Assembly: GCA_024401925.1 (NCBI GenBank)
Contig: JAKSKD010000001.1
Coordinates: 1 to 64,000 of the forward strand
Direction: 5' to 3'
DNA: 64,000 nt
Source: Bacteroidales bacterium
GTDB lineage: Bacteria > Bacteroidota > Bacteroidia > Bacteroidales > UBA932
Below the pieces are notes generated by a model. It did not search any database, was not told the DNA's origin, and saw only the letters and a program-made list of their open reading frames with translations. Every line of letters starts with the position of its first letter. The stretch's first letter is position 1. Of the stretch, positions 29,973 through 63,489 are shown in pieces. A program made the translations under genes and the position numbers.

Positions 29973-30230
29973 CTATTTGTGCGGAAAGCTTGGATAATTG
30001 TTTATTGCCGTATCCAGAAATTCGAATCTTTTCTCCAGCCAGTTTTTCAGTTTTCTCACCTCTTCGCTATGGCTGTAGCGGATGTCCCAAATCGACAAAT
30101 CAGTATCTGCGCTGGATACTATAAGTTCCTCGGTGCAGTCAATGCTGTCAAGAAGGTAGCCGAGAAGGTCTTCCTCAACTTCATTCCAGCGCTCCTTCAC
30201 GGCATCCACGAATTCCGGAAGTGTCTTTTT
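29973..30230 (-). pseudogene. C-terminal remnant of a CotH-like protein gene
   Basis: A minus-strand frame open from a TAA at 30231-30233 to a stop at 29973 reads LPEFVDAVKERWNEV, then LLDSIDC...WDI, then EEVRKLKNWLEKRFEFLDTAI. This order (PEFV..VKxRW, a central helix, xLKxWLxxRxxxLD) is what I recall for the extreme C-terminus of CotH-kinase-like secreted proteins. No start or upstream domain remains. The first 50 bases overlap, in another frame, the end of the GH51 gene. It looks like the scar of a replaced gene. Confidence 0.65.
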
Positions 30231-32253
30231 TTATCTTGACTTCATAAACAGCGAACGTACGGCCGCCTATCCTTGTCCTGACAGAAGGGATGCCATTTTC
30301 CGCAGATGTTTGCATTTCTATTTCTGATGTCTTTGGCACGACTGCATACGGAGATTCAATGGTATTCTCTGCTATGGGATTGTCTGAATGGATGGACGTG
30401 ACTGTTCCTCCATTTATCCCGGCTGTTCCCGGAAACTGCAGTTCCACTTCCCTGTTGAATTCATCCAGGTTGGCCAATTTCACGATTACTCTGTCACCGT
30501 CCCTGAGAGACGTGGCGTATAACCTGCTCTGTCCGTCTTTTCCGGCAACAGGCCTGCCATCCATCAATGCCGGGATGACTGTTCCGTGGCCGTTGAGTGA
30601 GTAGAGTTGCTGAACATAGTAGTTTGTGGTCTTTACAACGTTCAGATTGTCGAACCATACAAGGTCCGGACGCCACTGCCAGCCCTTGGTATGTGCAAGC
30701 AAAGGAGCATATGTAGCCATATACACCACATCCGCGTTCCGTTCAAGACCTGTCATAAACGCAGACTCCACAAGGGCCGCATTGAAATGGTTGTATTTCT
30801 TACCGTCAGAACCGTGACAGGCGTACTCGCCGGCAAAAACTTTGGTGCCTTCCCTAGGGTAATTGTCATAACGGTCGGCATTGCGTTCATAGAACAACTC
30901 GCTGCTGTAATAGTGCTCGTCAACAAGGTCGCACCCGAGTTCCCTCATCGCCGGCCACAGTTCATCGAACCATTCTCCTCCGAGATATGGCCCGGCAGAG
31001 CCGATGAGCTTGATTTCCGGATATCTGGCGCGGATCTGCTCAACGAAAGGCTTGAGATGCTCCACGAAATCAGTCCCCCACTGCTCATTGCCCACAGCAA
31101 GGAACTTGAGTCCAAAAGGCTCCGGATGCCCCATCTGTGCACGCACTTTCCCCCAGGTTGATGTGGCAGGACCGTTGGCGAATTCGATAAGATCCAGAGC
31201 ATCGTCTATATAAGGCTGAAGAGCTTTCAAATCTGCGTGGGGATGATCGTCAGGGTCATTCTGGAACTGGCAGGCCATTCCGCAACTGATTACCGGCAGG
31301 GGTTCCGCCCCTATTTCCTCGGCGAAACGGAAGAATTCATAGAATCCAAGACCATATGACTGATAATAGTCAGGGAACATCCTATAGTCAAAGGAATAGT
31401 TCCAGCGGTTCATATTTGTCGGACGGTTCTCCACCGGTCCCACGCTGTTCTTCCACTGATAGCGCTGCTCAAGTGTAGTTCCTTCTACAATGCAGCCTCC
31501 GGGAAATCTCAGCACCCCGGGCTTGAGGTCGGCAAGAGCCTGGGCTATATCCTTTCTGAGTCCGTTGGAATCGCCGTTGTATGTATCTACAGGGAAGAGG
31601 GATACATGTTCAAGATCAACGCAGCAGTCCTGACGGTATCCGTCCTCTTCTGTCCAGCTGCAAAGCACGATTCTCAGTGTCGCATCATCAATTGTTCGCG
31701 GTGCGGTGAATACCACCTCATATTTTTTCCAGTCGCTGCCGTTGATTTCTAGGACTTCTTCATAGAAAATCTGGCTCTCTTCCATCGTGTCATTGTCGCA
31801 CAGGGCGAAATATATCAACTCGCTGCCCGCAGCTCGTGACTTTCTGGAATATGGAGCGGTGCGCGCCCAGACACAAAAACGGTATTGCTCTCCTTCCCTG
31901 ATGCCCATACCGAAAAATCCCTCATTCTCAATGCCGGTATACATCACGGGATGACCGGCATTTTTAAGACGAACATAGTGCGGACATCTCTCGAACGGGC
32001 CGTCATCACGGACTTCAACCTTTCCGAAAGTTTTCCACCCCGACAAAGGATTGTCAAACTCGAAGGATCTGTTTTTTACCAGCTCTGCGTACAGACCTCC
32101 GTCTGCACCGTAGTTGATATCCTCAAAGAAAATACCGTACATAGTCTCCTGTACAGGAAAACCTTCTGCACGTGTGTCAATGGTGATTTTCTGCGCCGTT
32201 GCCACCAATGGCAGCCAGATGGCTGCCAGCGCCAATGCCATCGTCTTTCTCAT
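30181..32253 (-). CDS. GH51 alpha-L-arabinofuranosidase
   Basis: Predicted to release alpha-linked L-arabinofuranose. The 690-residue product from ATG 32251-32253 has a signal peptide (MRKTMALALAAIW..., cleavage after VATA), an N-terminal carbohydrate-binding-like region, and the GH51 barrel: FEDINYGADGGLYAEL, PGVLRFPGGC, acid/base Glu390 in FLAVGNEQW and nucleophile Glu476 in VFAGEYACH. The start directly follows the GH127 stop (2-base gap). The last 15 or so residues, after VYEVKIKK, come from reading into the CotH remnant in another frame and are not family sequence. Alpha-Araf caps occur on extensin Hyp-arabinosides and on pectic arabinan. Confidence 0.9.
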   Translation of the reverse strand: MRKTMALALAAIWLPLVATAQKITIDTRAEGFPVQETMYGIFFEDINYGADGGLYAELVKNRSFEFDNPLSGWKTFGKVEVRDDGPFERCPHYVRLKNAGHPVMYTGIENEGFFGMGIREGEQYRFCVWARTAPYSRKSRAAGSELIYFALCDNDTMEESQIFYEEVLEINGSDWKKYEVVFTAPRTIDDATLRIVLCSWTEEDGYRQDCCVDLEHVSLFPVDTYNGDSNGLRKDIAQALADLKPGVLRFPGGCIVEGTTLEQRYQWKNSVGPVENRPTNMNRWNYSFDYRMFPDYYQSYGLGFYEFFRFAEEIGAEPLPVISCGMACQFQNDPDDHPHADLKALQPYIDDALDLIEFANGPATSTWGKVRAQMGHPEPFGLKFLAVGNEQWGTDFVEHLKPFVEQIRARYPEIKLIGSAGPYLGGEWFDELWPAMRELGCDLVDEHYYSSELFYERNADRYDNYPREGTKVFAGEYACHGSDGKKYNHFNAALVESAFMTGLERNADVVYMATYAPLLAHTKGWQWRPDLVWFDNLNVVKTTNYYVQQLYSLNGHGTVIPALMDGRPVAGKDGQSRLYATSLRDGDRVIVKLANLDEFNREVELQFPGTAGINGGTVTSIHSDNPIAENTIESPYAVVPKTSEIEMQTSAENGIPSVRTRIGGRTFAVYEVKIKKDTSGIRGCREGALE

Positions 32254-32255
32254 AA

Positions 32256-34658
32256 TTACTTGACTGACCATTCATATATACCTGCAGACAATTTGTCCTG
32301 CAGTTCGATTTCAATCTTGACTGCTGAAGTAGTGACCGGTTTGAAGGTTATAGTGCAGTCGGCTAATTTTTTAACAGGGTAAACTGCACTGCTCTCTACC
32401 GGCTGCCAGTTGCCATCACCGTCCAGATAAAGAATCCTCCAGGATTTCGGGAGCCCGCATCCGCCCCACGGCTGGTCCTCGAACCAGAATACCGTGCTTG
32501 AACTTATTGTGCTTGGCTGGGCAAATGTGTAACTTATCCATTCCACGCCTCCCTCCTTTGGCCACCAATGATAATATGGTACTGACATATCATCTTCAGA
32601 CGGTATCAGCCGGTCATTTATTGCGTCGATTGACACAGACATTGTTGATGCGTCAATTTTGCTCTGAGAAGCGAGGGTGGCAGGTTTGGTTGCCCTCACC
32701 GCGCTCAGGTCCTGCGCAAGCCAGACCGCCATCTCACCGCTGCCGCGGTGGCACCAGGCATAGTACGGGATGAGCGTGAGCGTCACGTCCTTGACTTCGA
32801 GTTTCCCGGACTTGTTGAATGCTATGGTCTGGGCTTCGGTTGAAATCTTTTCTACGCTGTAAAGTTCATCACTATGGAACACCTTGAACTCCGGTTCCTG
32901 GTTCAAGAGGACACTGCGTACTGAGAAATCATTGTCAGGCCACTCGGCGCAATAAACCACAGGGCCGCGCTCCACTGAGATGCGTCCGGCGTCAGCCTTG
33001 ACATTTGGATTGGCCTTGACCACGCGCGGCTCCATGTCGAAATGCACGCTGATCTTGTCACCCTTGACCCATTTGCGTTCTATGGTGAAGTATCCGTCCT
33101 CGGTGAGGCTGCCTTCTGCTTTCTCGCCGTTGACGAGGATGCTGTAGCCGAGGCGCTTGCCGTCAGCGTAGGTGTAGAGGTCGCTCGGGACTACCTCGCC
33201 CTTGACCCAGCCAGGGATGCGGATCTTGATGCCGAACGGCTTTTTCTGGGCGGTCTTGTCGATGCTGATGGCTACGTCACCGTTCCAAGGATAGTTGGTC
33301 TCCTGGCTGATGGTTACGGCCTTGCCTTCGATTTTCTGAGTGAGGGTGTTGGAAGCGAACAGGTTGACATACAGGTCATTGCCCTTGGCGGCATAGATAT
33401 AGCCGGGGAATGAAGGTATGAAGCGGCAGATGTTGGAAGGGCAGCAGGCGCAGCCGAACCATGCTTTTCTCTGATGCTGGCCGATGCTTTCGAGAGGGTT
33501 CGGATAGAAGAATCCGTCGCCTTCGAGGCTCACGCCGCTGATGAGACCGTTGTAGAGCGAGCGCTCGAGCACGTCGATGTACTTGCTCTGGCCGTGGAGA
33601 AGGAACATTCTGTAGTTCACATAGACGTTGCCGATGGCGGCGCAGGTCTCACAGTAGGCGCTCATATTAGGGAGCTCGTAGTTGTCTCCGAAGGCTTCAC
33701 CGTCATTTGTGGCACCGATGCCGCCGGTGATGTAGAGCTTCTTGCTGACGATGTTGTCCCAGATGCGGTCAATGGCGTCGATATATGCCTTCTCTCCGGT
33801 AAGGGCGGCCACATCAGCGATGCCTGAATACATATAGGCAGCGCGGACGGCGTGTCCCACAGCCTCATCCTGCTCAAGGATGGGTTTGTGTGCCTGGCTG
33901 TACTCATCCGAACGCTCCGTGTATCCTCTCTTGTCAAGGAAGAACTTGGCCTGGTCGAGGTATTTCCTGTCTCCTGTAACTGTATAGAGTTTGCTGAGTG
34001 CCATTTCTGCAATCTGATGCCCCGGGACACGCACCACCTGACCTTCTCCTTCGCCGATTTCGCGGCATACGCAGTCAGCGTAGCGGATGGCTATGTCGAG
34101 AAAAGTCCTCTTGCCTGTGGCCTGATAGTGGGCTATGGCACCTTCCACCATATGACCCAGGTTGTAGAACTCGTGGCTGAGGTCTTCCACCATCTCCCAG
34201 CGGTGCTCACCTGCCCACTCGTGAGGGTGCTCAGGATTCATTGTACGCGAAGTGTACAGATATCCGTCCGGTTCCTGCGCGGCCTCCACAATTGCGAGCA
34301 CACTGTCAATATATGCTTCAAGCTTCGCATCCGGATAAGTCTGCAGTATATAACTGGCCCCTTCTATGGTTTTGTATACGTCCGTGTCATCGAACGCCAA
34401 TCCGCCAACCTCGAATCCGAGATTATGGTCTGCATTCATTTGCTGTGCGGCTTTGACGAAATTGTCGTAGCGTCCCGTTTCCTCGCATTTGCTGAAGGCG
34501 AGAGGGATGGTGACTTCGCGGGAGGCCTTGAGTCTCTGGCCCCAGAAGGAAGCGGATTCAACCTTGACGGAGGTGAAAGGCACCGGGTCAATCGGGTACT
34601 GCGCGAATGCTGACACTGTCAGGACAAGCGCTGCGGCGGTCATTGCAAATCTTTTCAT
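32256..34658 (-). CDS. GH127 beta-L-arabinofuranosidase
   Basis: Expected to release L-arabinose from beta-L-Araf units, as HypBA1 of Bifidobacterium longum does on Hyp-linked beta-arabinooligosaccharides of extensin. The 800-residue product has a signal peptide (about 20 residues), the (alpha/alpha)6 barrel, and the zinc/cysteine site: Glu337 and Cys339 (YCETCAAIGN) with Cys405 and Cys406 (CACCPSN); by homology the first Cys of the pair is the nucleophile. A C-terminal beta-sandwich (about 670-800) may bind sugar. It lies between the GH97 fusion and GH51 genes, 11 and 2 bases apart. Confidence 0.93.
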   Translation of the reverse strand: MKRFAMTAAALVLTVSAFAQYPIDPVPFTSVKVESASFWGQRLKASREVTIPLAFSKCEETGRYDNFVKAAQQMNADHNLGFEVGGLAFDDTDVYKTIEGASYILQTYPDAKLEAYIDSVLAIVEAAQEPDGYLYTSRTMNPEHPHEWAGEHRWEMVEDLSHEFYNLGHMVEGAIAHYQATGKRTFLDIAIRYADCVCREIGEGEGQVVRVPGHQIAEMALSKLYTVTGDRKYLDQAKFFLDKRGYTERSDEYSQAHKPILEQDEAVGHAVRAAYMYSGIADVAALTGEKAYIDAIDRIWDNIVSKKLYITGGIGATNDGEAFGDNYELPNMSAYCETCAAIGNVYVNYRMFLLHGQSKYIDVLERSLYNGLISGVSLEGDGFFYPNPLESIGQHQRKAWFGCACCPSNICRFIPSFPGYIYAAKGNDLYVNLFASNTLTQKIEGKAVTISQETNYPWNGDVAISIDKTAQKKPFGIKIRIPGWVKGEVVPSDLYTYADGKRLGYSILVNGEKAEGSLTEDGYFTIERKWVKGDKISVHFDMEPRVVKANPNVKADAGRISVERGPVVYCAEWPDNDFSVRSVLLNQEPEFKVFHSDELYSVEKISTEAQTIAFNKSGKLEVKDVTLTLIPYYAWCHRGSGEMAVWLAQDLSAVRATKPATLASQSKIDASTMSVSIDAINDRLIPSEDDMSVPYYHWWPKEGGVEWISYTFAQPSTISSSTVFWFEDQPWGGCGLPKSWRILYLDGDGNWQPVESSAVYPVKKLADCTITFKPVTTSAVKIEIELQDKLSAGIYEWSVK

Positions 34659-34669
34659 GGTATAATTGT

Positions 34670-37600
34670 TTATTTATTGATTCTTATGCTGTATGGCCAC
34701 TGGGCCTGAGAGTTCATGATGTGCTCCGAAGGGGCTCCCATGACGACGAACCAGAGGCACTGGATATCCTGATCCTGAGGTGCGGAATATGAAACTGTCC
34801 CTGTGGCGGACTTATGCATAGGGCAATAGATGGAGTGTCCGTCAGCGCCGATGGCCAGGAAACCGTATCTCCATCCCGCGAGGTCTTTGTTTTCGCCGTT
34901 GAATCCCTCCAGACCGGCTTCTCCTCTGAAATCGATGCTTACAGTCTCTCCTCTATGAGGCACTTCGACCGGGATGGCGTTGAAGCCGTAGTCTTCAGGG
35001 CAGTTGTCCTTGGCTACCCTCTGCCAGCCTTCTTCTGCAGGGGACAGTTTTGTGACATTCTTGTTGGCATAAGGGCGGCTTTCCTCCCAAACCCTTTCAT
35101 AATCCCAATTTACGAAATGGCAGCAGCCGTCCCACATTTCATCGTTGAACTGCTCCTGGGTCATGTTGAAATGCCTCTTGTATGTCATTACCGGGTCTTC
35201 TCCTATGCGTCCCTCGCGGTAAAGGTCAGCTATCAGGCCGACACCGTGACGGGCAGCCCAGTCCTCGATGACATAAGGGGAGTGGTACATGTTTTCAAAA
35301 TGCAGGAATGCTTTGTGAGTCAATGTGTTCCATGCGTCCCAATGGTATTTCTCGCTTGTCTGCCACTCAGGGTTGACGTTCCAGAGCATCCATTGTGAGG
35401 TCATCTCGAAGAAAGGACTTCCGCCCCACGCCTGACCCATGTCATCGCATGATATCTGGCTCTGGAATGAGTGGCCGAGCTCGTGTGCGATGCAGTTCAG
35501 CCTGCTGTCCTGTATGCGTCCCGGAGTCACCCAAAGCGCTCCGATGGTGCTGTCGACGTCGCCGCCGTAAGCTGTCTGCTCAAGGTCATAGCGGACATGG
35601 CATATCATCCTGTACTTGTCTGCGATGGAGCCTTTCTGGATGAACCCCATTTCATCCTTGTAGCATTTGTAGAATCTTTCCAGATTATCCGCAAGGTTCT
35701 TCAAGTCCCAGGTCATAGGCTGTCCGCCAAGCTCCGGAGCCTTGGAAGGTTCTGCTCCGAATCCTTTCTGCCAGAAAATGGCTACATTGTCGGTGCAGTA
35801 CATCCTATGGTAGCTCCACTGGCTCTCCGGATCGTTCGGGTCCTGCCCACCCCATTCTTCGGGGATGTATATCATCTTCCCTTTGGGAAGCTCGGATTTC
35901 TTGATGAGCTTCATGGCGAAACCGCCTCCGGAGGCCATCCTGATGCTGATGGACTCGCCTTTGCGGACCGTTTTGTGCTCAAGGACGTAATCCTGTGCGT
36001 TCTTGTCGGCGTTGGCTCCGTCCCGGAGCAAATGCAGATTGTATTTGCCCTCGCCGAGGAAGTCAAGTGATATGTCCACATCCTTCCCGTCCCAGTCGGC
36101 GAGTCCGCCCACGTACCAGTTGTCGCCCACACGGCGGGCAATGACGACGTATCCGCCCATCTTTCCGTCAAGGCACACGGTCTGCTCGTATGTGCGTGGC
36201 AGTGTGCTGATGAAATCCGTCACATCTTTTTCTTTCTCGTAGCGTGAAGGTGTGTCGCAGAGCATGGTGAGAGGGGAGTCCACGGCTATGTAGATGGCCG
36301 CCTGCTGGCCGCGTGTGCCGAGTGAGAACGGGTTGCTGTAAACAGGCTTGAAATCTTCCAATGATGCGTTCAGCATGGCTCCCGGGGTGAAGTCGGTGTA
36401 TCCGCACATCTGTCTGATAAACGGGAATGTAACGAGATATTCAGGCATGTTGATGCTTGCCTCGCCCCATTTGACCTCTTCCATTCCGAATACTGACTCG
36501 AAGTTCAGCACGTTCGGATAAGTCCTGTTCATACCAGCTGGCGGATAGATGCCGTGGTAGTCGAGCACCAGATGGTGGCGGGCGGCGGCTTCAGCTATCC
36601 TCCATGCCATCTCCACGCCTGTCTGGTCGCCTCTGTCGAGGAAATCCACCTTGAAACCGGCTATGCCCATATCAGCGTAGTGCTTGCATGTCTCCTCCAG
36701 CTTGTCATCGAGTACGTTGAATACAGTCCAGAGTATAAGCTTCACGTTCCTTTCCGCGGCATACTTCACCAGAGCCGGAATGTCAAGCTCAGGGATCGGA
36801 GTGAGCATGTCGCCTGAAGACGGCACATACCAACCTTCGTCAAGAATAATGTATTCCAAGCCGTTAGCGGCGGCGAAATCTATATATTTCCTGTATGTAG
36901 GCATGTTGATGCCAGCCTTGAAGTCCACTCCGGTGAGTCCCCAGTCGTTCCACCATTCCCATGCCGAGAAACCTGGCTTGATCCATGATGTGTCACCTAT
37001 CCTCGATGGCTCAGCCAATGCGTACACGAGGTCGTTCACAGGCATCTCAGTGTCTTCGCGGGAAACGGCAAGGATTCTCCACGGGAAAGTCCTCACGCCT
37101 TCGAATGTGCAGATGAAGTCCTTTGTGTCAGTGACATACTGCTGCTGGCGTCCCGGATATCTGTCGTATGCAGATGGGTAGGCCGGGAATTCTCCCGCTA
37201 TGGCCGTGCTTCCCTTTTCCGGACGTACGAACATCACCGGATATGACTGAATGTCCGCTTCCAGGATGGTCACGCGCGCTCCGTCGGTGTTTACGCTTGC
37301 GGGAAGGAAACCGGGTATGGCTGCGTCGGCCTTGCTTATGTTTTCAGTTCTGTATGTGTTCTGGAAGGCCATGGCGTATGGCTTCTTCTCGTTCGTGGTG
37401 TAAGCCATGGTGAGCTCGTAGTCTTCGCTGAAAACGAATGACGCCGTTTCGTCGGTGACAGTTGTGCTCACTCCCTGTTCTCCTCCGAAGAACCTGTATG
37501 CAGCTCCCTGGTTTGAAACGATCCATTCCATGCCCCAGCCTTTCCCGAAATCCAGCTTGAGTGTGTTGTATTCGAAGCTGAAGGTATCCTGTCTGTAGAA

Positions 37601-37867
37601 TGGAGCTTCTATCCGTTCCTTGACCGGTGATTTCGAGATACGTGCTTTTCTGACTTTTGTGGAAGTTCCGAAGGTTCTTCCGTCTGAGAGTTTCATTTCA
37701 GCGATGCTTGTCGACATCGCTGTCCTTCCATCGATAGTGAGGCAGTAAGCTCCGTCCTGGATGCTGACTGAAATCCTGCCGTCAGGGGAGAATACCTCTG
37801 TTCTGGATGATGCATGTGCGCCCAAGGCTATGAAAAGAGCCGCCAAGGCCGGAAAAAGTGATTTCAT
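34670..37867 (-). CDS. GH97 alpha-galactosidase fused to a DUF6055 zinc-peptidase-like domain
   Basis: A 1065-residue secreted fusion (signal peptide to about residue 19). Residues 20-640 form a GH97 enzyme of the retaining alpha-galactosidase type: WEWWNDWGLTG, ILDEGWY, nucleophile Asp408 in FKVDFLDRGDQ and likely acid/base Glu457 in LNFESVFGMEE. From about 650 to the end it matches the DUF6055 protein encoded at 50112-51818, with the zincin motif HELGH at 795-799, a following WGG...FFEMTSQW segment and the shared end WPYSIRINK. Joining a glycosidase to a peptidase-like domain fits attack on an alpha-galactosylated protein; that role is inferred. First gene of a GH97-GH127-GH51 operon divergent from the regulator. 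Confidence 0.9.
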   Translation of the reverse strand: MKSLFPALAALFIALGAHASSRTEVFSPDGRISVSIQDGAYCLTIDGRTAMSTSIAEMKLSDGRTFGTSTKVRKARISKSPVKERIEAPFYRQDTFSFEYNTLKLDFGKGWGMEWIVSNQGAAYRFFGGEQGVSTTVTDETASFVFSEDYELTMAYTTNEKKPYAMAFQNTYRTENISKADAAIPGFLPASVNTDGARVTILEADIQSYPVMFVRPEKGSTAIAGEFPAYPSAYDRYPGRQQQYVTDTKDFICTFEGVRTFPWRILAVSREDTEMPVNDLVYALAEPSRIGDTSWIKPGFSAWEWWNDWGLTGVDFKAGINMPTYRKYIDFAAANGLEYIILDEGWYVPSSGDMLTPIPELDIPALVKYAAERNVKLILWTVFNVLDDKLEETCKHYADMGIAGFKVDFLDRGDQTGVEMAWRIAEAAARHHLVLDYHGIYPPAGMNRTYPNVLNFESVFGMEEVKWGEASINMPEYLVTFPFIRQMCGYTDFTPGAMLNASLEDFKPVYSNPFSLGTRGQQAAIYIAVDSPLTMLCDTPSRYEKEKDVTDFISTLPRTYEQTVCLDGKMGGYVVIARRVGDNWYVGGLADWDGKDVDISLDFLGEGKYNLHLLRDGANADKNAQDYVLEHKTVRKGESISIRMASGGGFAMKLIKKSELPKGKMIYIPEEWGGQDPNDPESQWSYHRMYCTDNVAIFWQKGFGAEPSKAPELGGQPMTWDLKNLADNLERFYKCYKDEMGFIQKGSIADKYRMICHVRYDLEQTAYGGDVDSTIGALWVTPGRIQDSRLNCIAHELGHSFQSQISCDDMGQAWGGSPFFEMTSQWMLWNVNPEWQTSEKYHWDAWNTLTHKAFLHFENMYHSPYVIEDWAARHGVGLIADLYREGRIGEDPVMTYKRHFNMTQEQFNDEMWDGCCHFVNWDYERVWEESRPYANKNVTKLSPAEEGWQRVAKDNCPEDYGFNAIPVEVPHRGETVSIDFRGEAGLEGFNGENKDLAGWRYGFLAIGADGHSIYCPMHKSATGTVSYSAPQDQDIQCLWFVVMGAPSEHIMNSQAQWPYSIRINK

Positions 37868-38004: not shown

Positions 38005-38011
38005 TAACAAT

Positions 38012-40642
38012 ATGAAAAGGTTAATGTCTCTGTTCGCCGTCATGTCGCTTTGTATCCAGAGCGTACTGGCCCTGCCTAAGTTCCAGTTCAGGAACCTGAC
38101 CTCCGAGAGCGGTCTTTCTTCCAATACGGTCCTGGCCATGGAGCAGGACCATCTCGGCATGATATGGATAGGCACAGCGGACGGCCTTTATTCGACCGAC
38201 GGCCTTGAAATGGTCCGGCATGACTTCTGCCCGGTAGGAGACATCCTTGTAATAAACTGCCTTATGGCTGATTCCTCCGACAGGCTCTGGATAGGCACTG
38301 ACAATGCTGTCCATGTATATGAATCAGACATACATCTGTATTTTTCCTCATCTGTAACTGCAATCCTGGAGGACAGGGATTCCAACATCTGGATCGCAAC
38401 CCGAGGTGATGGAGTGATGCGCTATCATCCTTCAACGGGTGAGATCGACACTTTCGACGGAATCGGTGAATGCGAAGTCCTTTTCCTTGACTCGCATAAT
38501 ATCCTCTGGATGTGCAGCAGGGAAGGTACGATGCATATCTACTCATTCACTGACGACAGCGTCCGTGAGGCAAACCTCAACTGGGACTCGGGAAAGTCCT
38601 ACCGAATAATGTCCATAGTGGAGAGTGAGACTTCCGACCTGTGGCTTCTTTCATGGGACTCGGGAGTGTTCCATTTTGACCGTGCCTCCATGTCGGTAAG
38701 GCATCTCCCAGGGACAGCAGACGGCAAAGGCTTCTCGCATGTCCATTATTCCATGGAGTACAAGCCTTCGGAACTGCTGGTCTCCTCCGATGACGGCCTT
38801 CTGTGGTACAATACACAGACCTATGAGTCCAGCCTTTATACCTTCCAGCGTTTCGTGTATCCTATCCTGAAGGATGCTGAAGGCGGAATCTGGGCCGGAT
38901 CGTACTATGGCGGCGTTTCTTATTCATCCATAAACAGCGGCCAGTTCGATACTTTTCCTCTTGAAATCGATGGCGAAAACTGCATTGTGAGCTGTTTGTG
39001 CGAGGATACCGATGGGACAGTCTGGGCCGGCTGCGACAACTTCGGCCTCGTCCATTTCTCTCCGAAAGACGGCCATATCATCGGACGTTACATGACTGAA
39101 CGCAATGTCCATGCTATCATACTGGTTGGGGATTTCCTTTGGGTCGGGTCTTATGCCGGAGGGCTTTACAGGTTGGACAAGAACACGGGTGCGGTCAAGG
39201 ATTACCTCAAAGGCAGCAGCGTTTTTGACTTGATGATCGATTCGCATGGCACGATGTGGGTGGCCACCATGGGCTCCATCCTGTCCTTTGACAGAAAGAC
39301 CGGTGCTACCCTGAGCACTCTCGATATCGGCGGTACTGCCGTGGATATCGCCGAGACGTCAGATGGATCGTTATGGTTCGCGACGGACTCCAGGGGATTG
39401 CTCCGATATGACCCGTCGACTGACGTGTGGAGCGATTTCAAAAGGGATTCCGGGCTTCCGAGCGAGCATATCAACAGCCTTTATGTTTCCGACGGGAACA
39501 ACCTTTTCGTCGGTACTGCTTCCGGCTTGTCCATGCTGTCAGTCGGTACAGGCGTGTTCCTTAACCAGGATTTCAGCATCGGCAAGAACATCCTATATGT
39601 GACATCTGACGGCTTGAATCTCTGGTGTTCCGCGTCTGACGGCCTTTTCCGCTACAATCCTGTCGAATTGAAGGCTGAGCGCTATATCATCGACGACGGC
39701 CTGAATTCGCTTCAGTTCATGGCGGGGTCAGGCACCTCCTCGGCCAACGGGCGCATATTCCTGGGTACTTCCAGCGGAGTAAGCGCATTCTATCCGCACA
39801 GCATCCATACCAATGAGTATGTGCCGCCTGTTATCATCACGAGGTTCAGGATGAGGGAGAAGGACCGCAAGGCCTCCGGACAGCCTGCTGAGTATCAGGT
39901 GATATCCGATTTCCTGAATTCTGTTTTCAAACACAACCAGAACAATTTCATCTTCTCCTTCGCTTCTTTGAGCTACACTTCTCCGGCCAAGAACCGGTAC
40001 AAGTACAAACTGGAAGGTTTTGACGAGAGATGGCGTGAGAGTGAAGGCAACCGTGCCGAGTATACCAATATTCCTGCGGGGAAATATGTATTCCGTGTCA
40101 TGGGCTCCAACAATGACGGAGTCTGGAATGAAAAGGGGGTGTCTGTGCCTTTCATAGTCCGTCCTCATTTCCTTAAGAGCAAAGGGGCTATGGTGTTCTA
40201 TCTCCTTGTTCTCATTTTCCTTTCATTCCTTCTATTAAGGTTTATCCAGAAGCGCATCAAGGAAGTCTCGGATGAGCGGTACAACAATTATGTCAAGGAG
40301 TTCGAGGAGAACGAGCGTGACCGCCGCGACAAGGATATGGTCCAGAAACTCAAGGAAATAATCAAGGCCAACATAACGAATTCCGAGCTGACAGCCGATT
40401 TCCTGGCCAACGAACTCTGCGTCTCCCGCTCGGGCCTCTTCTCAAAAGTGAAGGAGGTCACGGGCAAGACGCCTCATGACCTGATCATGGAAGAAAGGCT
40501 CGAGCAGGCCTCCATCCTGCTGGACACCACAGACAAGAGTGTCAGCGACATCAGTTTCCTGGTCGGTTTCAACTCTCCTTCATATTTCTCCAAGTGCTTC
40601 ACCAAAGCGAAGGGTAAGAGCCCTTACAACTGGCGCGGTTAA
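38012..40642 (+). CDS. Membrane-anchored sensor-AraC regulator lacking kinase and receiver
   Basis: An 876-residue protein that resembles a hybrid two-component regulator with the middle removed. Order: signal peptide; two beta-propeller lobes of Reg_prop repeats (for example MIWIGTADGLYSTDG, LWFATDSRGLLRYD); a Y_Y_Y domain near 650-715 (FDERWRESEGNRAEYTNIPAGKY); one membrane helix at about 727-746; a short cytoplasmic coiled coil (EFEENERDRRDKD); and an AraC-type HTH at about 785-876 (LADFLANELCVSRSGLF-like first helix pair, SPSYFSKCFTKAKGKSPYNWR). There is no HisKA, ATPase or receiver segment. Ligand binding outside would have to act on the DNA-binding domain directly, perhaps by dimer change. 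It sits centrally in the locus, divergent from the GH97 operon. Confidence 0.9.
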   Translation: MKRLMSLFAVMSLCIQSVLALPKFQFRNLTSESGLSSNTVLAMEQDHLGMIWIGTADGLYSTDGLEMVRHDFCPVGDILVINCLMADSSDRLWIGTDNAVHVYESDIHLYFSSSVTAILEDRDSNIWIATRGDGVMRYHPSTGEIDTFDGIGECEVLFLDSHNILWMCSREGTMHIYSFTDDSVREANLNWDSGKSYRIMSIVESETSDLWLLSWDSGVFHFDRASMSVRHLPGTADGKGFSHVHYSMEYKPSELLVSSDDGLLWYNTQTYESSLYTFQRFVYPILKDAEGGIWAGSYYGGVSYSSINSGQFDTFPLEIDGENCIVSCLCEDTDGTVWAGCDNFGLVHFSPKDGHIIGRYMTERNVHAIILVGDFLWVGSYAGGLYRLDKNTGAVKDYLKGSSVFDLMIDSHGTMWVATMGSILSFDRKTGATLSTLDIGGTAVDIAETSDGSLWFATDSRGLLRYDPSTDVWSDFKRDSGLPSEHINSLYVSDGNNLFVGTASGLSMLSVGTGVFLNQDFSIGKNILYVTSDGLNLWCSASDGLFRYNPVELKAERYIIDDGLNSLQFMAGSGTSSANGRIFLGTSSGVSAFYPHSIHTNEYVPPVIITRFRMREKDRKASGQPAEYQVISDFLNSVFKHNQNNFIFSFASLSYTSPAKNRYKYKLEGFDERWRESEGNRAEYTNIPAGKYVFRVMGSNNDGVWNEKGVSVPFIVRPHFLKSKGAMVFYLLVLIFLSFLLLRFIQKRIKEVSDERYNNYVKEFEENERDRRDKDMVQKLKEIIKANITNSELTADFLANELCVSRSGLFSKVKEVTGKTPHDLIMEERLEQASILLDTTDKSVSDISFLVGFNSPSYFSKCFTKAKGKSPYNWRG

Positions 40643-40649: not shown

Positions 40650-40681
40650 ACAAAAAATCGGAGGCCCATCAGCCTCCGATT
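40650..40681 (-). terminator. Terminator of the HypD operon, overlapping the activase stop codon
   Basis: AATCGGAGGC (40656-40665) and GCCTCCGATT (40672-40681) form a 10-bp stem with a 6-base loop, followed on the minus strand by a run of six T. The activase stop codon (40669-40671) lies in the loop. On the plus strand it may also stop the regulator transcript, whose stop codon is just upstream. Confidence 0.85.
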
Positions 40682-54162: not shown

Positions 54163-55860
54163 TTAATAACCAGGGTTCTGCTTGAGGTTGGCGTTGGAGT
54201 TGAGAACATCAAGCGGAATAGGGAAGAGGGCAGTGTGCCCGTCAGAAATAGCTTCATGGTTGAACCAGTTCTTTGTAGAGTAAGTTCCGAAACGGATCAT
54301 CTGCTGACGGCGGAGCCCTTCGAGAGCGAACTCCCATCCCCATTCGTCATACATACCGCCCAGGGCAACCTTTGCCTTGTCGGCTGCAGATGCCTTCGGC
54401 TTCTGTGAAGCCTCGAGCTCCTCTACGACTGAAGACCAGTCGTGTGAGTCGTTGCAGGCCTGCCAAACTTCGTATGTGAGAGAGCCCCAAGGAAGCAGAC
54501 CGTAGACCATCTTGGTGTCACCTTTGAGGTCCGCTGCAGTAATGGCAGGAGCTACGCGAGCGCGTACTGCATTGACAGCAGCGACAGCGTCAGCCTCGTT
54601 CTGACCGAGACGGAGAAGGCACTCAGCCTTTGTGAGATAAGCCTCAGCGAGACGGAAGAAAGGCATGTCGTTGCCCCAGTAGAACTCTGTTTCAAGATCC
54701 TTTCCATACTTGTTTTGTCTGAGACCGAAATCGATGCTTGTCATAGACTTGCCCTTATCCTTTCCTGCATCCGGCTTGGATGTGAGTGAAGGGAGGTAGT
54801 TCAGGTTTGTCCATACGATGCTTCCGTCAGATTTTGCACATGGACCGTACATCCAGGTGAGTTCCTTGCGGGTGTCACCAGGCTGGTAAGAGTTCACGAA
54901 CTGAGGGTTGGCGCAAGAACCGCCCCAGCACTGGTATGACCATCCGAAGTACTCCTTTGATACAGGCGGGTACCATTTTGCATTCTGGCTGAATACATGG
55001 CCACCGGTGTCGAATTTAGCATCGTAAGGGATGGCGAACATCACTTCAGTGTTGTCGGGACCGAGATTCACGATGAAGTTGTCGCTGTAGTTTGCCGAAA
55101 GTGTGTACGGGCTGTTGTCAACGATATCGCTGGCCAGAGCGAGAGCCCTGTCATAAGCCGGAGTGCCGGTATAGACCTCAGCGTTGAGATATACTCTCAT
55201 AAGGGCCATCTCGGTGGTCCAGTGGTTCAGACGGCTGTATGTTGAAGCACTCTTTTCCTTGGTGAGAGTGTTTGCTGCGAGAACCTCGGTGAACTCCTTT
55301 ACTACAAATTCATAGACTTCCTGACGGGTCCTGTATGCAGGAACTTCGTCGGTGAAAGCGGTCACGATAGGAACGTTTCCGTGTGAGTCGAGAAGGATTG
55401 AGTACCAGAGGGCGCGGACTGCGCGGAGCTCGTTGACCATAGATGCCTTGGACTCCTCGTCCACTGGAAGTGAACCGTCTTCGAGCTGACCGAGTACGCG
55501 GTTGCAGTTGTTGACTCCTGTGAAACCTGTCTCATATACGTTCCAAGGCTGCCATTCCTCGGCGCTCCAAGTGTGCTTGTGCATGCGCTGATAGGTACCG
55601 CCATCATCCCAACCGTTAGGACGTACAGGAGTGATGACTACGTCTGCAGGCTCTTCCATAGCGTCGAAGAGACCCTGCCAGTCAAAGAAGAATGCAAGAG
55701 GTGTGTATGCGCTCGCAAGCAGGGATGCAACATCCTGCTCTGAAGGAGTGAAGGACTCCTGAACGATTTCTGAGAAAGCCTCTTCTGTGAGATCGAAGCA
55801 GCCGGTGAGCATTGTCATAGAAGCTGCAAGAGCCAAAGCTATATTTTTAATCTTTTTCAT
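54163..55860 (-). CDS. SusD/RagB family nutrient-binding lipoprotein
   Basis: A 565-residue lipoprotein (MLTGC lipobox) of the SusD family: N-terminal SusD-like region with SLLASAYTPLAFF, helical TPR-type scaffold (YDRALALASDIVDNSPYTL), PFFRLAEAYLTKAECLLRLGQ and a C-terminal YDEWGWEFALEGLRRQQMIRFGTY. It forms the lid of the SusC transporter in the outer membrane. 12 bases downstream of susC and 6 bases before the repeat-containing binding protein. Confidence 0.95.
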   Translation of the reverse strand: MKKIKNIALALAASMTMLTGCFDLTEEAFSEIVQESFTPSEQDVASLLASAYTPLAFFFDWQGLFDAMEEPADVVITPVRPNGWDDGGTYQRMHKHTWSAEEWQPWNVYETGFTGVNNCNRVLGQLEDGSLPVDEESKASMVNELRAVRALWYSILLDSHGNVPIVTAFTDEVPAYRTRQEVYEFVVKEFTEVLAANTLTKEKSASTYSRLNHWTTEMALMRVYLNAEVYTGTPAYDRALALASDIVDNSPYTLSANYSDNFIVNLGPDNTEVMFAIPYDAKFDTGGHVFSQNAKWYPPVSKEYFGWSYQCWGGSCANPQFVNSYQPGDTRKELTWMYGPCAKSDGSIVWTNLNYLPSLTSKPDAGKDKGKSMTSIDFGLRQNKYGKDLETEFYWGNDMPFFRLAEAYLTKAECLLRLGQNEADAVAAVNAVRARVAPAITAADLKGDTKMVYGLLPWGSLTYEVWQACNDSHDWSSVVEELEASQKPKASAADKAKVALGGMYDEWGWEFALEGLRRQQMIRFGTYSTKNWFNHEAISDGHTALFPIPLDVLNSNANLKQNPGY

Positions 55861-55872
55861 AGAGTACTCGGA

Positions 55873-58887: not shown

Positions 58888-58930
58888 GCTGTTTTTAGTT
58901 TTAGATTATAAATAATTGGTTTATTGAGGA

Positions 58931-60169
58931 TTAGTTTTTGACCGGTGTGAGCCTGACGAGCTTGACCCCGTGCCCGGGCACTTCTGCCTTGTAGTTGGTT
59001 GCGGTGGTCCCGACGTCCTTGTGTAGCCACAGGTCCCTTATTTTGTATCTCTTTTTGTGCAGATTTATATTCTCGGCGAAATACATTGTCTGATCAGTCC
59101 AGCAATAATCGAGATTCCAGACAAATTCGCTGCGGTTCATAAAGCAGATGGCGATTTCTCCTCCATCCAGAGGTTTTGCCCAAATCTGTCTGTCGCCCAT
59201 ATCCATAAAGAGCGTGGCCTGAATTCCAAGTTTATCCTGATCGAGCGCTATGACTTCCTTGTTTGAAAGTATTTCAAGAATCTGTGATGTCATATTGCGC
59301 AGATCATTGCCGCACATAAGTGGCGCAGACAGCATACACCACATAGAAAAATGAGTAATATTCTCATCGTAACTCATCTGGCCGTTGCCCACCTCAAGCA
59401 TCTCAGCATCGTTCCAATGTCCAGGACCGGCATATTCTACAAGATCCTTCATCGCGTCGATGCACCCGAGCACTCCGACGCCTCCCCAGTCGAACTTCGC
59501 ATTGTAAACGGCGCGGATGTCAGGAGTCACCCTCCAGAGGTGGCCAATGCCTTTGCCCCATTCCCAAGGCTTGTTTTCACCCCATTCGCAGATGCTCAGG
59601 ATAATGGGTCTGCCTGCTGTCTTTATGGCCTCTGCCATTGTCCTATATGCTGCCTCGGCGTTCTGACCTCCGTTGTTGCACCAGTCATATTTCAGGTAGT
59701 CGACTCCCCATTCGGCATATTTGAGAGCATCCTGGTACTGATGCCCGTTGCTTCCGGGTCTTCCTTGACAAGTGTAGTCACCCGCACAGGAATATAGACC
59801 GAACTTGAGTCCTAGGCTGTGAATATAGTCAGCAAGCGCCTTGATGCCGTGAGGGAATGCTTCGGGGTCTGCAACGATATCTCCCTTCTCGTCTCTGGAT
59901 ATCTGCCAACAATCATCCATTACGATATACTCGTATCCTACATCATTAAGTCCCGAACTCACCATTGCCTCGGCTATCGAGCGAATCTTATCCTCATCGA
60001 TCTTTCCGCCGAAGATGTTCCAGCTGTTCCAGCCCATCGGAGGAGTCTGGGCGAGAGATTCGTATTCCTCGTCGCTGAGCTTCCGGACTTCACCGTTCTG
60101 GGCAAAGCAAAGGGATGAGCATGTCATCAGGACAGTTGATACTGCGGTGAGAAGAGCTTGGAGTTTCAT
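58931..60169 (-). CDS. GH27 alpha-galactosidase
   Basis: A 412-residue secreted enzyme (signal peptide ending near CFAQ). GH27 clan-D motifs are complete: TPPMGWNSWN, MDDCWQ, nucleophile Asp162 in YLKYDWCN and acid/base Asp254 in GHWNDAEMLEVGN. It removes terminal alpha-D-galactose; alpha-galactose is O-linked to serine in extensins, so it fits the proposed substrate, though galactomannan or raffinose-type substrates are equally possible from the sequence alone. First gene of the long minus-strand run down to the activase. Confidence 0.94.
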   Translation of the reverse strand: MKLQALLTAVSTVLMTCSSLCFAQNGEVRKLSDEEYESLAQTPPMGWNSWNIFGGKIDEDKIRSIAEAMVSSGLNDVGYEYIVMDDCWQISRDEKGDIVADPEAFPHGIKALADYIHSLGLKFGLYSCAGDYTCQGRPGSNGHQYQDALKYAEWGVDYLKYDWCNNGGQNAEAAYRTMAEAIKTAGRPIILSICEWGENKPWEWGKGIGHLWRVTPDIRAVYNAKFDWGGVGVLGCIDAMKDLVEYAGPGHWNDAEMLEVGNGQMSYDENITHFSMWCMLSAPLMCGNDLRNMTSQILEILSNKEVIALDQDKLGIQATLFMDMGDRQIWAKPLDGGEIAICFMNRSEFVWNLDYCWTDQTMYFAENINLHKKRYKIRDLWLHKDVGTTATNYKAEVPGHGVKLVRLTPVKN

Positions 60170-60528: not shown

Positions 60529-63489
60529 ATGAAACTTCTGAACCGCATCATCTCCGCCACCCTGTTCGTGGTCGCGCTTCTGACCGCCCCTCAGCTTTCC
60601 GGAGCATCGAAAAGAAACATTTCCAAGGTCGATCCGATCTCAGTGACCACTCCTGAAGGCACTGCCCCGCGACTCCCGTACCAGGTGTTCGTGAAGTACT
60701 CGGACGGCACTTCGGAATGGCGCCAGGTCAAGTGGGACAATTTTTCGAGAGAGACCGAAGATGATGAGGCGGATCCGAAGACTCATCCCGCCGGAACTGT
60801 ATATACCGTCACTGGCAACATTATCGGCGACAACACCACAGAAAACGGTTATCCCGTTTCCGCCAGGGTCGAAGTCGTGAAGGAAGCTTGGGCGGTTCCT
60901 GCATCCAAACCGGTTGCGGAGACTCTCCCTCTTGCTGACGTCAAGCTCCTCGGCGACAACCGCCTTACATCAAACAGAGACCTCGATATCAATGAAATCA
61001 TCAGCTGGGACGTAAAGCAGCAGCTCTACAACTACCGTGACACTTACGGCCTCAGTACAGAAGGCTATCCTGTCTCAGATGGCTGGGACTCTCCTGATAC
61101 CAAACTCAAGGGTCATGGTTCGGGGCATTATATGTCAGCTCTCGCTTTTGCGTATTCAAGCACGGATGACCCGCAGCAGAAGGCACAGCTCAAGGAGAGA
61201 GCGAAGTTTATGGTGGACCAGCTCCGTGAGTGCCAGGAGATGACTTTCGTCTGGTCAGACTCGCTCGGACGCTACTGGGAGGCCCGCGACCTGGCTCCTG
61301 AGGAGGAACTCAGGGAACTCAAGGGTACATGGGATGCTTTCGACGAATACAAGAAAGACTGCACGAAATACGGCTATGGCTACATCAACGCCATCCCTGC
61401 ACAGCATCCGGCCCTCATCGAGATGTACCGTGCATACAACAACTCCGACTGGGTATGGGCGCCGTATTACTCCATCCACAAACAGCTCGCCGGTCTTATC
61501 GATATTGCTAACAACTTTGACGACAAGGAGATAGCTGACAAGGCCCTCCTTATCGCCAAGGACATGGGCCTTTGGGTATGGAACAGACTCCATTACCGTA
61601 CATATGTCAAGATGGACGGTGACAAGCAGGAACGTCAGGCCAAGCCAGGCAACCGTTACGAGATGTGGAACATGTACATTGCCGGTGAGGTGGGTGGCAT
61701 GGCCGAGTCGCTCTCGCGCCTGTCCGAGATGGTCTCCGACAAGAATGAGAAGTCGAAACTTATAGAGGCCGCCAACTACTTCGATTCTCCGGCCCTCTTC
61801 AACCCGCTTTCAGCCGGAGTCGATGATATACGCACCCGTCACGCCAACCAGCACATCCCTATGATTGTCGGCGCACTCCGTTCATACCGGGTGAATGAGA
61901 ATCCATATTACTATAATATTGCCCTTAACTTCTGGAACATGATGCAGGGCCGTTACATCTATGCGATGGGCGGTGTCGGAAACGGAGAGATGTTCCGCCA
62001 GCCATATACGCAGATTCTCAGTATGAACACCAACGTGATGACCGACCATAATCGTAACATGTACCCGAATCCCGATATCAATGAAACCTGCTGCGCATAT
62101 AATCTGGCAAAACTCACCAAAGACCTGAACTGCTACGATCCTGACGATGCAAGGTATATGGACTACTATGAGAGAGTTCTGTACAACCAGCTTGTAGGCT
62201 CCGTCCATCCGGAGCACTATATGACCACATACCAGTATGCTGTCGGAATGAACGCCGCGAAGGAGTTCGGCAACGAGACTCCGCAATCAACATGCTGCGG
62301 TGGCACAGGTTCCGAGAATCACGTAAAGTATCAGGAGGCAGCTTATTTCGTCTCCGACGACACTGTCTGGGTGGGGCTCTATATGCCTACCGAGGCTGAC
62401 TGGAAGGCCAAAGGAATCACCCTCGTCCAGGATTGCCTCTGGCCTGCTGAGAGGTCCGTAATCAGAGTCAAGGGCGGCGAAGCTGATTTTACCCTCAAGC
62501 TGCGTGTTCCTTATTGGGCTACTGAAGGATTCGACGTGAAACTCAATGGCGTGTCTGTCGCTCCTTCATATCAGCCTTGCTCTTATGTCGCTGTGCCTAA
62601 GCTTCATTGGACCGCTTCCGATGTCGTGGAGGTGGTGATGCCGTTCGGCAAGCACATAAACTTCGGCCCTGACAAGATGGATCTTGCCGCCACCGATGTG
62701 AACGAGACCGCCACCCCGTTCGACCCTCAATGGGTGGGGACGGTAATGTACGGGCCGCTTGCAATGGCTACCAGGGACGTGACCAGCTGGTTTGACGCCG
62801 ACATCAGTCTCAGTTCCGATCTCAAGGAAATCAAGCTCGAGGGTCATACTAACGATGCAGGCTTCAATGGAAACCTCTATACACTCAGCATAAATGGGTT
62901 GCATTTCCAGCCTGACTACTGGCAGACTGAGAATTCGACGCACTACCTGCGTCTCAACGTTCAGAACGGACCTAAGAAAAAAATCAAGGCCGGCAAGGTC
63001 GATAAGTCCGCCCTCCAGCAGGCTGTAGCCCTGGCCGTTGAGAGGAAGACGGCTCAGGAAGCATGGGAGGCCATGGCTGTCAAGGTCCCTGAATTCGCTC
63101 CTTGGGCTTCTAACGGATACGCCCGCCTCATGGAGAAGATGCAACGCGCCGAAGAAGTTCTGTCTATGAGAAAGAAGGACGTGACACCAGCCAAGATTGC
63201 CGCAGCCCTTTCATCCCTGAATATGGCAATCAACACCATGCGCCCCGGCAATCTCGCGGAACCTGAGGATCTGGATGCGCTGTTCCCGCTTCTGATGGAC
63301 TCCAGATACAACATCAATGACAAGACCACTGAACTTCGTGAAGCTATTGACTACGGCGAAATGGTAGTCCAGTATGTAAATGACGGCAGTGGAACAAAGG
63401 ACCTGATAGACAAAGCAATAATCCGGCTCAGAAAAGCCAGGGAAGAAATGGGAGTTGCAGCAGAAACAAACATTGGAATGTATCTGTAG
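60529..63489 (+). CDS. GH146/GH127-type beta-L-arabinofuranosidase
   Basis: A 986-residue secreted protein (signal peptide, cleavage near SGA). Residues about 35-120 are an Ig-like domain. The catalytic (alpha/alpha)6 domain (former DUF1680) has GHGSGHYMSALAFAY, HANQHIP, Glu519 with Cys521/Cys522 in NETCCAYNL and Cys589/Cys590 in STCCGGTGSENH, the zinc/thiolate site of cysteine-dependent beta-L-arabinofuranosidases. This motif form is closer to GH146 than to the GH127 enzyme encoded at 32256-34658. The last 120 residues are a helical repeat region. It is transcribed divergently from GH27. Confidence 0.87.
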   Translation: MKLLNRIISATLFVVALLTAPQLSGASKRNISKVDPISVTTPEGTAPRLPYQVFVKYSDGTSEWRQVKWDNFSRETEDDEADPKTHPAGTVYTVTGNIIGDNTTENGYPVSARVEVVKEAWAVPASKPVAETLPLADVKLLGDNRLTSNRDLDINEIISWDVKQQLYNYRDTYGLSTEGYPVSDGWDSPDTKLKGHGSGHYMSALAFAYSSTDDPQQKAQLKERAKFMVDQLRECQEMTFVWSDSLGRYWEARDLAPEEELRELKGTWDAFDEYKKDCTKYGYGYINAIPAQHPALIEMYRAYNNSDWVWAPYYSIHKQLAGLIDIANNFDDKEIADKALLIAKDMGLWVWNRLHYRTYVKMDGDKQERQAKPGNRYEMWNMYIAGEVGGMAESLSRLSEMVSDKNEKSKLIEAANYFDSPALFNPLSAGVDDIRTRHANQHIPMIVGALRSYRVNENPYYYNIALNFWNMMQGRYIYAMGGVGNGEMFRQPYTQILSMNTNVMTDHNRNMYPNPDINETCCAYNLAKLTKDLNCYDPDDARYMDYYERVLYNQLVGSVHPEHYMTTYQYAVGMNAAKEFGNETPQSTCCGGTGSENHVKYQEAAYFVSDDTVWVGLYMPTEADWKAKGITLVQDCLWPAERSVIRVKGGEADFTLKLRVPYWATEGFDVKLNGVSVAPSYQPCSYVAVPKLHWTASDVVEVVMPFGKHINFGPDKMDLAATDVNETATPFDPQWVGTVMYGPLAMATRDVTSWFDADISLSSDLKEIKLEGHTNDAGFNGNLYTLSINGLHFQPDYWQTENSTHYLRLNVQNGPKKKIKAGKVDKSALQQAVALAVERKTAQEAWEAMAVKVPEFAPWASNGYARLMEKMQRAEEVLSMRKKDVTPAKIAAALSSLNMAINTMRPGNLAEPEDLDALFPLLMDSRYNINDKTTELREAIDYGEMVVQYVNDGSGTKDLIDKAIIRLRKAREEMGVAAETNIGMYL

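What the first reader, a model, noticed from the sequence alone, without database searches (positions are those of the whole stretch)
30181..63489. Candidate locus for complete use of plant hydroxyproline-rich glycoproteins
One contiguous region combines enzymes for every bond class of an extensin-like glycoprotein. GH127 and GH146-type beta-L-arabinofuranosidases match Hyp-linked beta-arabinosides, GH51 matches alpha-Araf caps, and GH27 and GH97 match Ser-linked alpha-galactose. Four secreted zincin-type domains could cut the backbone, SusC/SusD could import glycopeptides, aminopeptidase P could free Pro/Hyp peptides, and HypD plus P5C dehydrogenase would turn Hyp into glutamate. Known polysaccharide loci stop at sugars; here amino-acid catabolism of the signature residue is in the same co-directional gene run. 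Gene content is seen directly; substrate and pathway flow are inferred. The main alternative is a pectic-arabinan locus with an unrelated Hyp operon.
Basis: partly seen in the sequence, partly recalled or inferred. Interest (0 to 1): 0.95.

Follow-up and report, generated by a model that had tools for sequence, protein, structure and literature searches.

The report
Whole-glycoprotein utilisation locus for extensin
A bacterium whose nearest named relatives come from herbivore guts carries, in one gene cluster, enzymes predicted to strip sugars from plant cell-wall hydroxyproline-rich proteins, cut and import the protein and likely turn its hydroxyproline into glutamate, and the pairing of this peptidase family with hydroxyproline genes recurs in distant relatives, even with a different hydroxyproline pathway.

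The parts
30181..32271 (-). GH51 alpha-L-arabinofuranosidase, signal peptide by eye
   Evidence: Pfam ASD1_dom 200 bits and Alpha-L-AF_C 107 bits, CBM_4_9
32256..34658 (-). GH127 beta-L-arabinofuranosidase, signal peptide by eye
   Evidence: Pfam PF07944 407 bits; best solved relative 6ex6, 1056 bits; CCPS and ETC motifs present
34670..37867 (-). GH97 retaining-type alpha-galactosidase domain fused to DUF6055 gluzincin peptidase domain (HELGH at residue 795)
   Evidence: Pfam GH97 305 bits + DUF6055 449 bits in one 1065-aa frame; best solved relative 3a24 alpha-galactosidase 592 bits; NF053844 750 vs cut-off 800
38012..40642 (+). Sensor-regulator: Reg_prop propeller, Y_Y_Y, AraC-type HTH, no kinase domain found
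   Evidence: Pfam
40656..40681 (-). Terminator-like hairpin (11 pairs, T tail) at the end of the gene run
   Evidence: consensus scan
40669..41688 (-). HypD activase (radical SAM)
   Evidence: TIGR02494 307 bits over cut-off 174; NF043069 309 bits, below cut-off 425
41678..44077 (-). HypD, trans-4-hydroxy-L-proline dehydratase (glycyl radical enzyme)
   Evidence: NF043068 1149 bits over cut-off 1100; 6vxc 942 bits, gapless; 14 of 14 checked active-site residues kept
44080..45492 (-). Aminopeptidase P (AMP_N + M24), no signal peptide seen by eye
   Evidence: Pfam
45473..46819 (-). M64 'IgA peptidase' family protein, HEFGH, lipobox by eye
   Evidence: Pfam PF09471 235 bits; 3p1v 345 bits
46812..48416 (-). 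Protein with lipobox (by eye) and two tandem zincin domains (HEFAH twice, 60% identical to each other), predicted Pro-Pro endopeptidase fold
48420..50048 (-). L-glutamate gamma-semialdehyde (P5C) dehydrogenase
   Evidence: TIGR01236 730 bits over cut-off 613.6
50112..51818 (-). BACON domain + DUF6055 gluzincin peptidase (HEIGH), lipobox by eye
51886..54156 (-). DUF4859 protein with lipobox (by eye), likely surface glycan-binding protein
   Evidence: Pfam DUF4859 41.8 bits; position next to SusD
54163..55860 (-). SusD
   Evidence: Pfam SusD_RagB 95 bits
55873..58887 (-). SusC
   Evidence: TIGR04056 740 bits over cut-off 368; SusC tree
58931..60169 (-). GH27 alpha-galactosidase
   Evidence: Pfam Melibiase_2 219 bits; 6f4c alpha-galactosidase 338 bits
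60529..63489 (+). GH146-like beta-L-arabinofuranosidase with Big_4 domain
   Evidence: Pfam PF07944 172 bits; 5opj 154 bits, 8k7y 115 bits

Best explanation
This is likely a glycoprotein utilisation locus: a gene cluster whose enzymes are predicted to take an extensin-type hydroxyproline-rich glycoprotein apart completely, sugars and backbone, and to feed its hydroxyproline into glutamate. Inferred order of events: GH27, GH97, GH127, GH146-like and GH51 enzymes outside the cell remove Ser-linked alpha-galactose and Hyp-linked arabinosides; DUF6055 peptidases (one tethered to the GH97 domain) cut the glycosylated Ser-Hyp backbone; SusC/SusD with the DUF4859 protein import glycopeptides; the M64 and the tandem Pro-Pro-endopeptidase-like proteins cut the Hyp-rich stretches; aminopeptidase P frees Xaa-Pro/Hyp ends in the cytoplasm; HypD converts free Hyp to P5C and P5C dehydrogenase converts that to glutamate. 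Gene content, order, packing, conservation and co-occurrence are shown; every enzymatic step, localisation and the substrate are inferred.
Against: No activity or expression data. DUF6055 scores 56 and 34 bits against the Svx model (cut-off 625) and matches only its peptidase part; the acyltransferase-like domain that Svx needs for extensin cleavage (PMC13164431) was not found here. Svx carbohydrate-site residues reported as W136, G137, N171 (PMC9266454, passages) are not at the corresponding spacing from HExxH in the window's DUF6055 copies (my reading). [quoted passage not shown] Many DUF6055 genes show no Hyp gene in the fetched flanks: 6 of 79 named loci show HypD; of 29 DUF6055 genomes that I chose among them, 17 have HypD anywhere, and in G516 it is over 100 kb away; around DUF6055 of G677 and G685 none of the other query enzymes was found. 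HypD also occurs without any of the marker genes in the fetched stretch in 31 of 51 tree rows.
Confidence: 0.76

Rival explanations
1. A pectic-arabinan or arabinogalactan(-protein) locus into which or beside which an unrelated hydroxyproline/proline-peptide operon happens to lie.
For: Beta-L-arabinofuranosidases of GH127 and GH146 also act on arabinan and AGP side chains (PMC10850190 passages); GH127 best relative 6ex6. GH127-domain genes are common in the genus without HypD: 36 of 44 such congeners tested, against 16 of 17 with HypD.
Against: Hyp genes are interleaved with SusCD, DUF6055 and peptidases in one run; co-occurrence and similar order in relatives; association with two Hyp pathways and in several HypD lineages; among the 16 proteins scanned no GH43 and no exo-beta-1,3-galactanase was found.
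Confidence: 0.1
2. The substrate is another arabinosylated Hyp glycoprotein (AGP with extensin-like modules, solanaceous-lectin type, algal Hyp glycoproteins) or a mixture, not extensin proper.
For: The enzyme set reads bond types (Hyp-Araf, Ser-Gal), not the protein; some loci with oxidative Hyp genes belong to marine or other non-gut bacteria by name (Mangrovibacterium, Salegentibacter).
Against: Svx precedent is extensin (PMC13164431); alpha-galactosidase-DUF6055 fusions fit the Ser-Gal of extensins; no beta-galactanase set for AGP among the 16 proteins.
Confidence: 0.1
3. The peptide part serves animal collagen/gelatin or general proline-rich peptides, with HypD as in other gut bacteria; the glycosidases are separate.
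For: HypD without the marker genes is frequent in the family; M64 peptidases are named for IgA.
Against: Collagen is not known to carry Araf or Ser-linked Gal (recalled); tight packing with SusCD and GH27; alpha-galactosidase-peptidase fusions.
Confidence: 0.04

Closest known systems
Polysaccharide utilisation locus (Sus-type) of Bacteroidota
   Same: SusC/SusD pair, neighbouring lipoprotein, secreted GHs, adjacent sensor-regulator
   Different: Adds five peptidase genes (two DUF6055, tandem zincin, M64, M24) and the Hyp-to-glutamate route; the polymer backbone would be protein
Bifidobacterium longum hypBA1-hypBA2-hypAA cluster and Xanthomonas homologues for HRGP arabinosides (PMC7263609, PMC6085000: abstract openings in the search listing)
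   Same: Beta-L-arabinofuranosidases for Hyp-linked arabinosides
   Different: What I saw names enzymes for the arabinosides and, in Bifidobacterium, an ABC transporter; no backbone peptidases or Hyp catabolism
Svx peptidase of Pectobacterium (PMC13164431 abstract and Results; PMC9266454 passages; PMC10815107 abstract)
   Same: Gluzincin peptidase domain related by profile (NF040510)
   Different: DUF6055 here lacks the acyltransferase-like domain, is fused to GH97, GH27, BACON or DUF4859, and lies in a nutrient locus rather than being a single secreted virulence protein
HypD of Clostridioides difficile (PMC7077986 passages; 6vxc)
   Same: Sequence, 14 of 14 checked active-site residues, neighbouring activase
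   Different: P5C dehydrogenase in the run (a P5C reductase partner in Clostridia is recalled); linked to glycoprotein-degrading genes
Pro-Pro endopeptidases PPEP-1/2/3
   Same: Predicted fold, HExxH and a downstream invariant Glu
   Different: 15-19% identity in the listed alignments, tandem duplicated, substrate unknown
Latescibacteria HRGP degradation prediction (PMC4454575 passages)
   Same: GH127 assigned to extensin, peptidases noted genome-wide
   Different: The passages report no dedicated locus, no Svx-like peptidase and no Hyp catabolism

Membership tests
Sus-type polysaccharide utilisation locus | adjacent SusC and SusD | tested here: met
   12 bp apart
Sus-type polysaccharide utilisation locus | linked carbohydrate-active enzymes | tested here: met
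   GH27 43 bp from SusC; GH51, GH127, GH97, GH146-like nearby
Sus-type polysaccharide utilisation locus | induced by and needed for its glycan | not testable with these tools
   no expression data
HypD (trans-4-Hyp dehydratase) | passes curated equivalog cut-off | tested here: met
   1149.4 vs 1100
HypD (trans-4-Hyp dehydratase) | catalytic and Hyp-binding residues of the C. difficile enzyme | tested here: met
   14 of 14 at gapless positions; 13 are named in the passages of PMC7077986, the radical glycine 765 is recalled
HypD (trans-4-Hyp dehydratase) | adjacent activase passing its own equivalog cut-off | tested here: not met
   NF043069 308.7 vs 425; subfamily TIGR02494 307 vs 174 is met
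P5C dehydrogenase TIGR01236 | curated cut-off | tested here: met
   730 vs 613.6
Svx (NF040510) | curated cut-off | tested here: not met
   55.8 and 34.1 vs 625
Svx (NF040510) | gluzincin HExxH...E peptidase domain | tested here: met
Svx (NF040510) | C-terminal acyltransferase-like (left-handed beta-helix) domain | tested here: not met
   no such Pfam domain in either protein; profile matches end at 421 and 264 of 601
Pro-Pro endopeptidase (PPEP) | fold | tested here: met
Pro-Pro endopeptidase (PPEP) | sequence family (Pfam ATLF PF07737) | tested here: inconclusive
   window protein no hit; a homologue, L051:17524-18333, 22.5 bits, cut-off 27.4
Pro-Pro endopeptidase (PPEP) | cleavage between two prolines | not testable with these tools
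   -
M64 peptidase | Pfam gathering score | tested here: met
   235.5 vs 26
GH97 retaining alpha-galactosidase (NF053844) | curated cut-off | tested here: not met
   750 vs 800, though the closest solved relatives are alpha-galactosidases 3a24/5e1q at 592/591 bits

The most novel reading that the evidence does not exclude
Bacteroidota have repeatedly built 'glycoprotein utilisation loci' that consume plant structural glycoproteins whole, as carbon and nitrogen: alpha-galactosidase-peptidase fusions that unmask and cut at Ser-Gal sites, Pro-Pro-endopeptidase-like enzymes for Hyp-Hyp bonds, and a swappable hydroxyproline module, glycyl-radical HypD plus P5C dehydrogenase in anaerobes and epimerase/D-Hyp dehydrogenase in oxygen users.
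Probability: 0.6. Interest if true: 0.9.

Novelty: new variant of a known kind. Interest (0 to 1): 0.86.

Why it matters
Extensins are a cross-linked, glycosylated part of plant cell walls and so of herbivore and human diets (recalled); how gut bacteria use them was not described in what I could search. This locus names a complete, testable route and suggests functions for DUF6055, for an unnamed zincin family with 1971 database matches and for HypD in plant-feeding communities. It extends the utilisation-locus concept from glycan to whole glycoprotein and offers an isolate with a related locus, Mangrovibacterium marinum, for tests.

Tried and rejected
Rejected: chance co-location (Fisher test and shared order); mis-assembly of this one genome (similar order in other assemblies, same calls). 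Rejected as evidence: presence of GH127-domain genes alone, found in 52 of 61 congeners (36 of 44 without HypD, 16 of 17 with).

Mixed results. Hyp epimerase occurs in 5 of 9 other strong-DUF6055 genomes of a phylum sample against 5 of 20 genomes without a DUF6055 match that I took from the top of that list; p=0.005 was computed only for the 5-of-5 class-level subset against the 20, and the 5-of-9 comparison is weak. Of the five, four have the epimerase 12 to 26 kb from DUF6055, but all four share one genus. Of 29 genomes that I chose from the 79 named loci, 24 have a proline-racemase-family match (23 over the cut-off); by equal contig length it lies on the DUF6055 contig in 8 and within 25 kb in 5 (L114, L135, L099, L109, L092). 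P5CDH also occurs in 13 congeners with neither HypD nor DUF6055. Of 29 DUF6055 genomes chosen from the named loci, 17 have HypD (15 over the cut-off, two split); several of these are also in the genus sample. HypD of G516 lies on the DUF6055 contig but over 100 kb away; HypD of G908 had no marker gene near. For G076/G088 HypD and the GH/DUF6055 genes are on different contigs, for G040 too; their linkage is open.

Not found: any sequence match of DUF6055 among solved structures or one better than E 0.034 for the tandem zincin. The fold match of DUF6055 to M60 peptidase ZmpB was weak (Foldseek E 6.7e-4, TM 0.22).

Counts: 'HypD' means summed matches of at least 500 bits, my threshold (17 of 250, 48 of 299); over the curated cut-off it is 12 of 250 and 32 of 299. 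DUF6055 in 17 of 250 includes one partial match (G350, 93 bits); two DUF6055-only genomes are 58-61% complete. Several named loci and G genomes are the same records (equal contig length: G370=L067, G333=L068/L073, G301=L075, G354=L141, G263=L077, G303=L079, G076=L140), so I did not add the two series. The HypD tree left out HypD under 740 aa and identical copies; 'linked' means a tblastn match over 150 bits to the tandem zincin, DUF6055, GH27, GH127, GH146-like or P5CDH in the fetched stretch, so some rows (L062, L196, L197, L198) count as linked by the zincin or P5CDH alone.

Literature: ten searches of an open-licence library, five of them on HRGP/extensin use and one (65) on Hyp catabolism; none lists a Bacteroidota locus joining HRGP glycosidases, peptidases and Hyp catabolism. 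Subscription papers are mostly missing. Recalled, from no call: that 6ex6 is BT3674 and 5opj BT0349, PPEP specificity, action of GH27/GH97 on Ser-Gal, oxygen use of the named genera, the standard Hyp pathways, HypD with P5C reductase in Clostridia.
Full report
What is there. The window is the first 64 kb of a 187,559-base contig of a 1.86-Mb, 67-contig assembly. The nearest named relatives of its DUF6055 gene are MAGs from roe deer colon and water deer rectum and Candidatus Cryptobacteroides caccocaballi. The last (L067) has the order DUF4859, DUF6055, P5CDH, M64, M24, HypD, activase, with P5CDH 81%, M64 70%, M24 71% and HypD 83% identical, but no tandem zincin. Domain scans confirm all 16 genes of the finding. 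From GH27 (60169) to the HypD activase (40669) eleven genes run on the minus strand with gaps between -20 and +67 bp, so the Hyp genes are inside the SusC/SusD run, not next to it. The longest minus-strand terminator-like hairpin falls right at its end. Of ten flanking proteins scanned, six are of housekeeping type (tRNA synthetase, EF-G, MutS, ParA-type, EPSP synthase, MutS2-like); the others are an S46 peptidase, a GH5-family enzyme, an alpha/beta hydrolase and a second GH97 about 11 kb past the window's end.

HypD. It passes the curated cut-off (1149 vs 1100), aligns without gaps to the solved enzyme 6vxc, and keeps 14 of 14 residues checked: 13 that the passages of the crystal-structure paper name for catalysis or Hyp contact (PMC7077986) and the radical glycine, whose number I recalled. 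P5CDH passes its cut-off. The pair gives, by established biochemistry, Hyp to P5C to glutamate.

Linkage test. In a sample of 299 genomes of the family, DUF6055 occurs in 6 and HypD (my 500-bit threshold) in 48; all 6 have HypD (p=1.3e-5). In 250 congeners each occurs in 17, both in 13 (p=3e-15), and P5CDH in 13 of 13 of these (in G482 and G301 as two pieces), in 0 of 4 HypD-only and 0 of 4 DUF6055-only genomes. By the places listed, DUF6055 and HypD share a contig in 9 of the 13: eight 4.6 to 6.1 kb apart, G303 25 kb apart. In G301 P5CDH runs into the ends of both contigs, the one with DUF6055 and the one with HypD. These tests do not correct for kinship. Mapping window proteins onto fetched stretches shows the order DUF6055, P5CDH, zincin or M64, M24, HypD on one strand in G292, G263, G376, G370, G477, G333, G482 and G419, with SusC or SusD upstream where the stretch reaches that far. 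Most other HypD stretches fetched from the family showed, of the window's proteins, only HypD and activase, so the linkage is a property of this locus, not of HypD.

Another Hyp pathway. In Galbibacter (L114) and Salegentibacter (L135) DUF6055 and SusC/SusD lie beside a 4-hydroxyproline epimerase (606 and 598 bits, cut-off 376), a DHDPS-family enzyme, an aldehyde dehydrogenase, a D-amino-acid dehydrogenase-type oxidoreductase and DPPIV. Their SusC proteins fall with the window's SusC in one group of 11 (support 100, quick tree) apart from the 40 others. Mangrovibacterium marinum has a longer version: DAO, epimerase, ALDH, DHDPS-family, M24, P5CDH-like, GH146-like, PPEP-like zincin, DPPIV, GH27, two GH127, DUF6055 and SusD on one strand, with one ORF on the other strand between and SusC next (L092); its SusC belongs to the larger group, so the association occurs in two SusC lineages. 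In a phylum sample of 345, ten genomes have strong DUF6055 (over 300 bits); of the nine besides ours five have the epimerase, four of them within 12-26 kb of DUF6055, all one genus; four (G779, G677, G654, G685) lack it. So DUF6055 alone does not imply Hyp use.

How it likely works. See Best explanation. Shown: genes, packing, conservation, co-occurrence, residues; predicted: folds. Inferred: substrate, cleavage sites, localisation, flux. Weakest link: that DUF6055 without the Svx acyltransferase-like domain still attacks extensin.

Known or new. Polysaccharide utilisation loci, HRGP arabinosidase clusters of Bifidobacterium and Xanthomonas, Svx and HypD are each known. A utilisation locus that joins them and adds catabolism of the backbone's signature residue was listed by none of ten searches of the open-licence library (see Tried and rejected). 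I rate it a new variant of a known kind.

Noticed in passing
L004:10884-12881 (contig C1:74884-76881): A second, stand-alone GH97 enzyme about 11 kb beyond the window, behind MutS.
   Followed up: no
L004:4355-6376 (contig C1:68355-70376): S46-family peptidase gene close to the locus.
   Followed up: no
27864-29854, +: GH5-family enzyme followed by an alpha/beta hydrolase just outside the locus on the other strand.
   Followed up: no
G354:C79:11287-16669, G333:C11:12384-17767, G303:C31:10006-15352: Three DUF6055 genes in a row in congeners, a possible sign of diversified cleavage sites.
   Followed up: no
G433:C64:3-2303: HypD at 1373 bits with one in-frame TGA, much higher than its congeners; may be a contaminant contig.
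   Followed up: no
L196:16855 and L197:9200: Relatives of the tandem PPEP-like protein (65-66% identical, over 700 bits) near HypD and M24 in G890 and G889, whose kinship is not told.
   Followed up: partly
38012-40642: Regulator has propeller, Y_Y_Y and AraC HTH but no kinase or receiver domain found: a one-component cousin of hybrid two-component systems.
   Followed up: no
G482:C25:93452-95093: P5CDH of a congener matches in two pieces.
   Followed up: no
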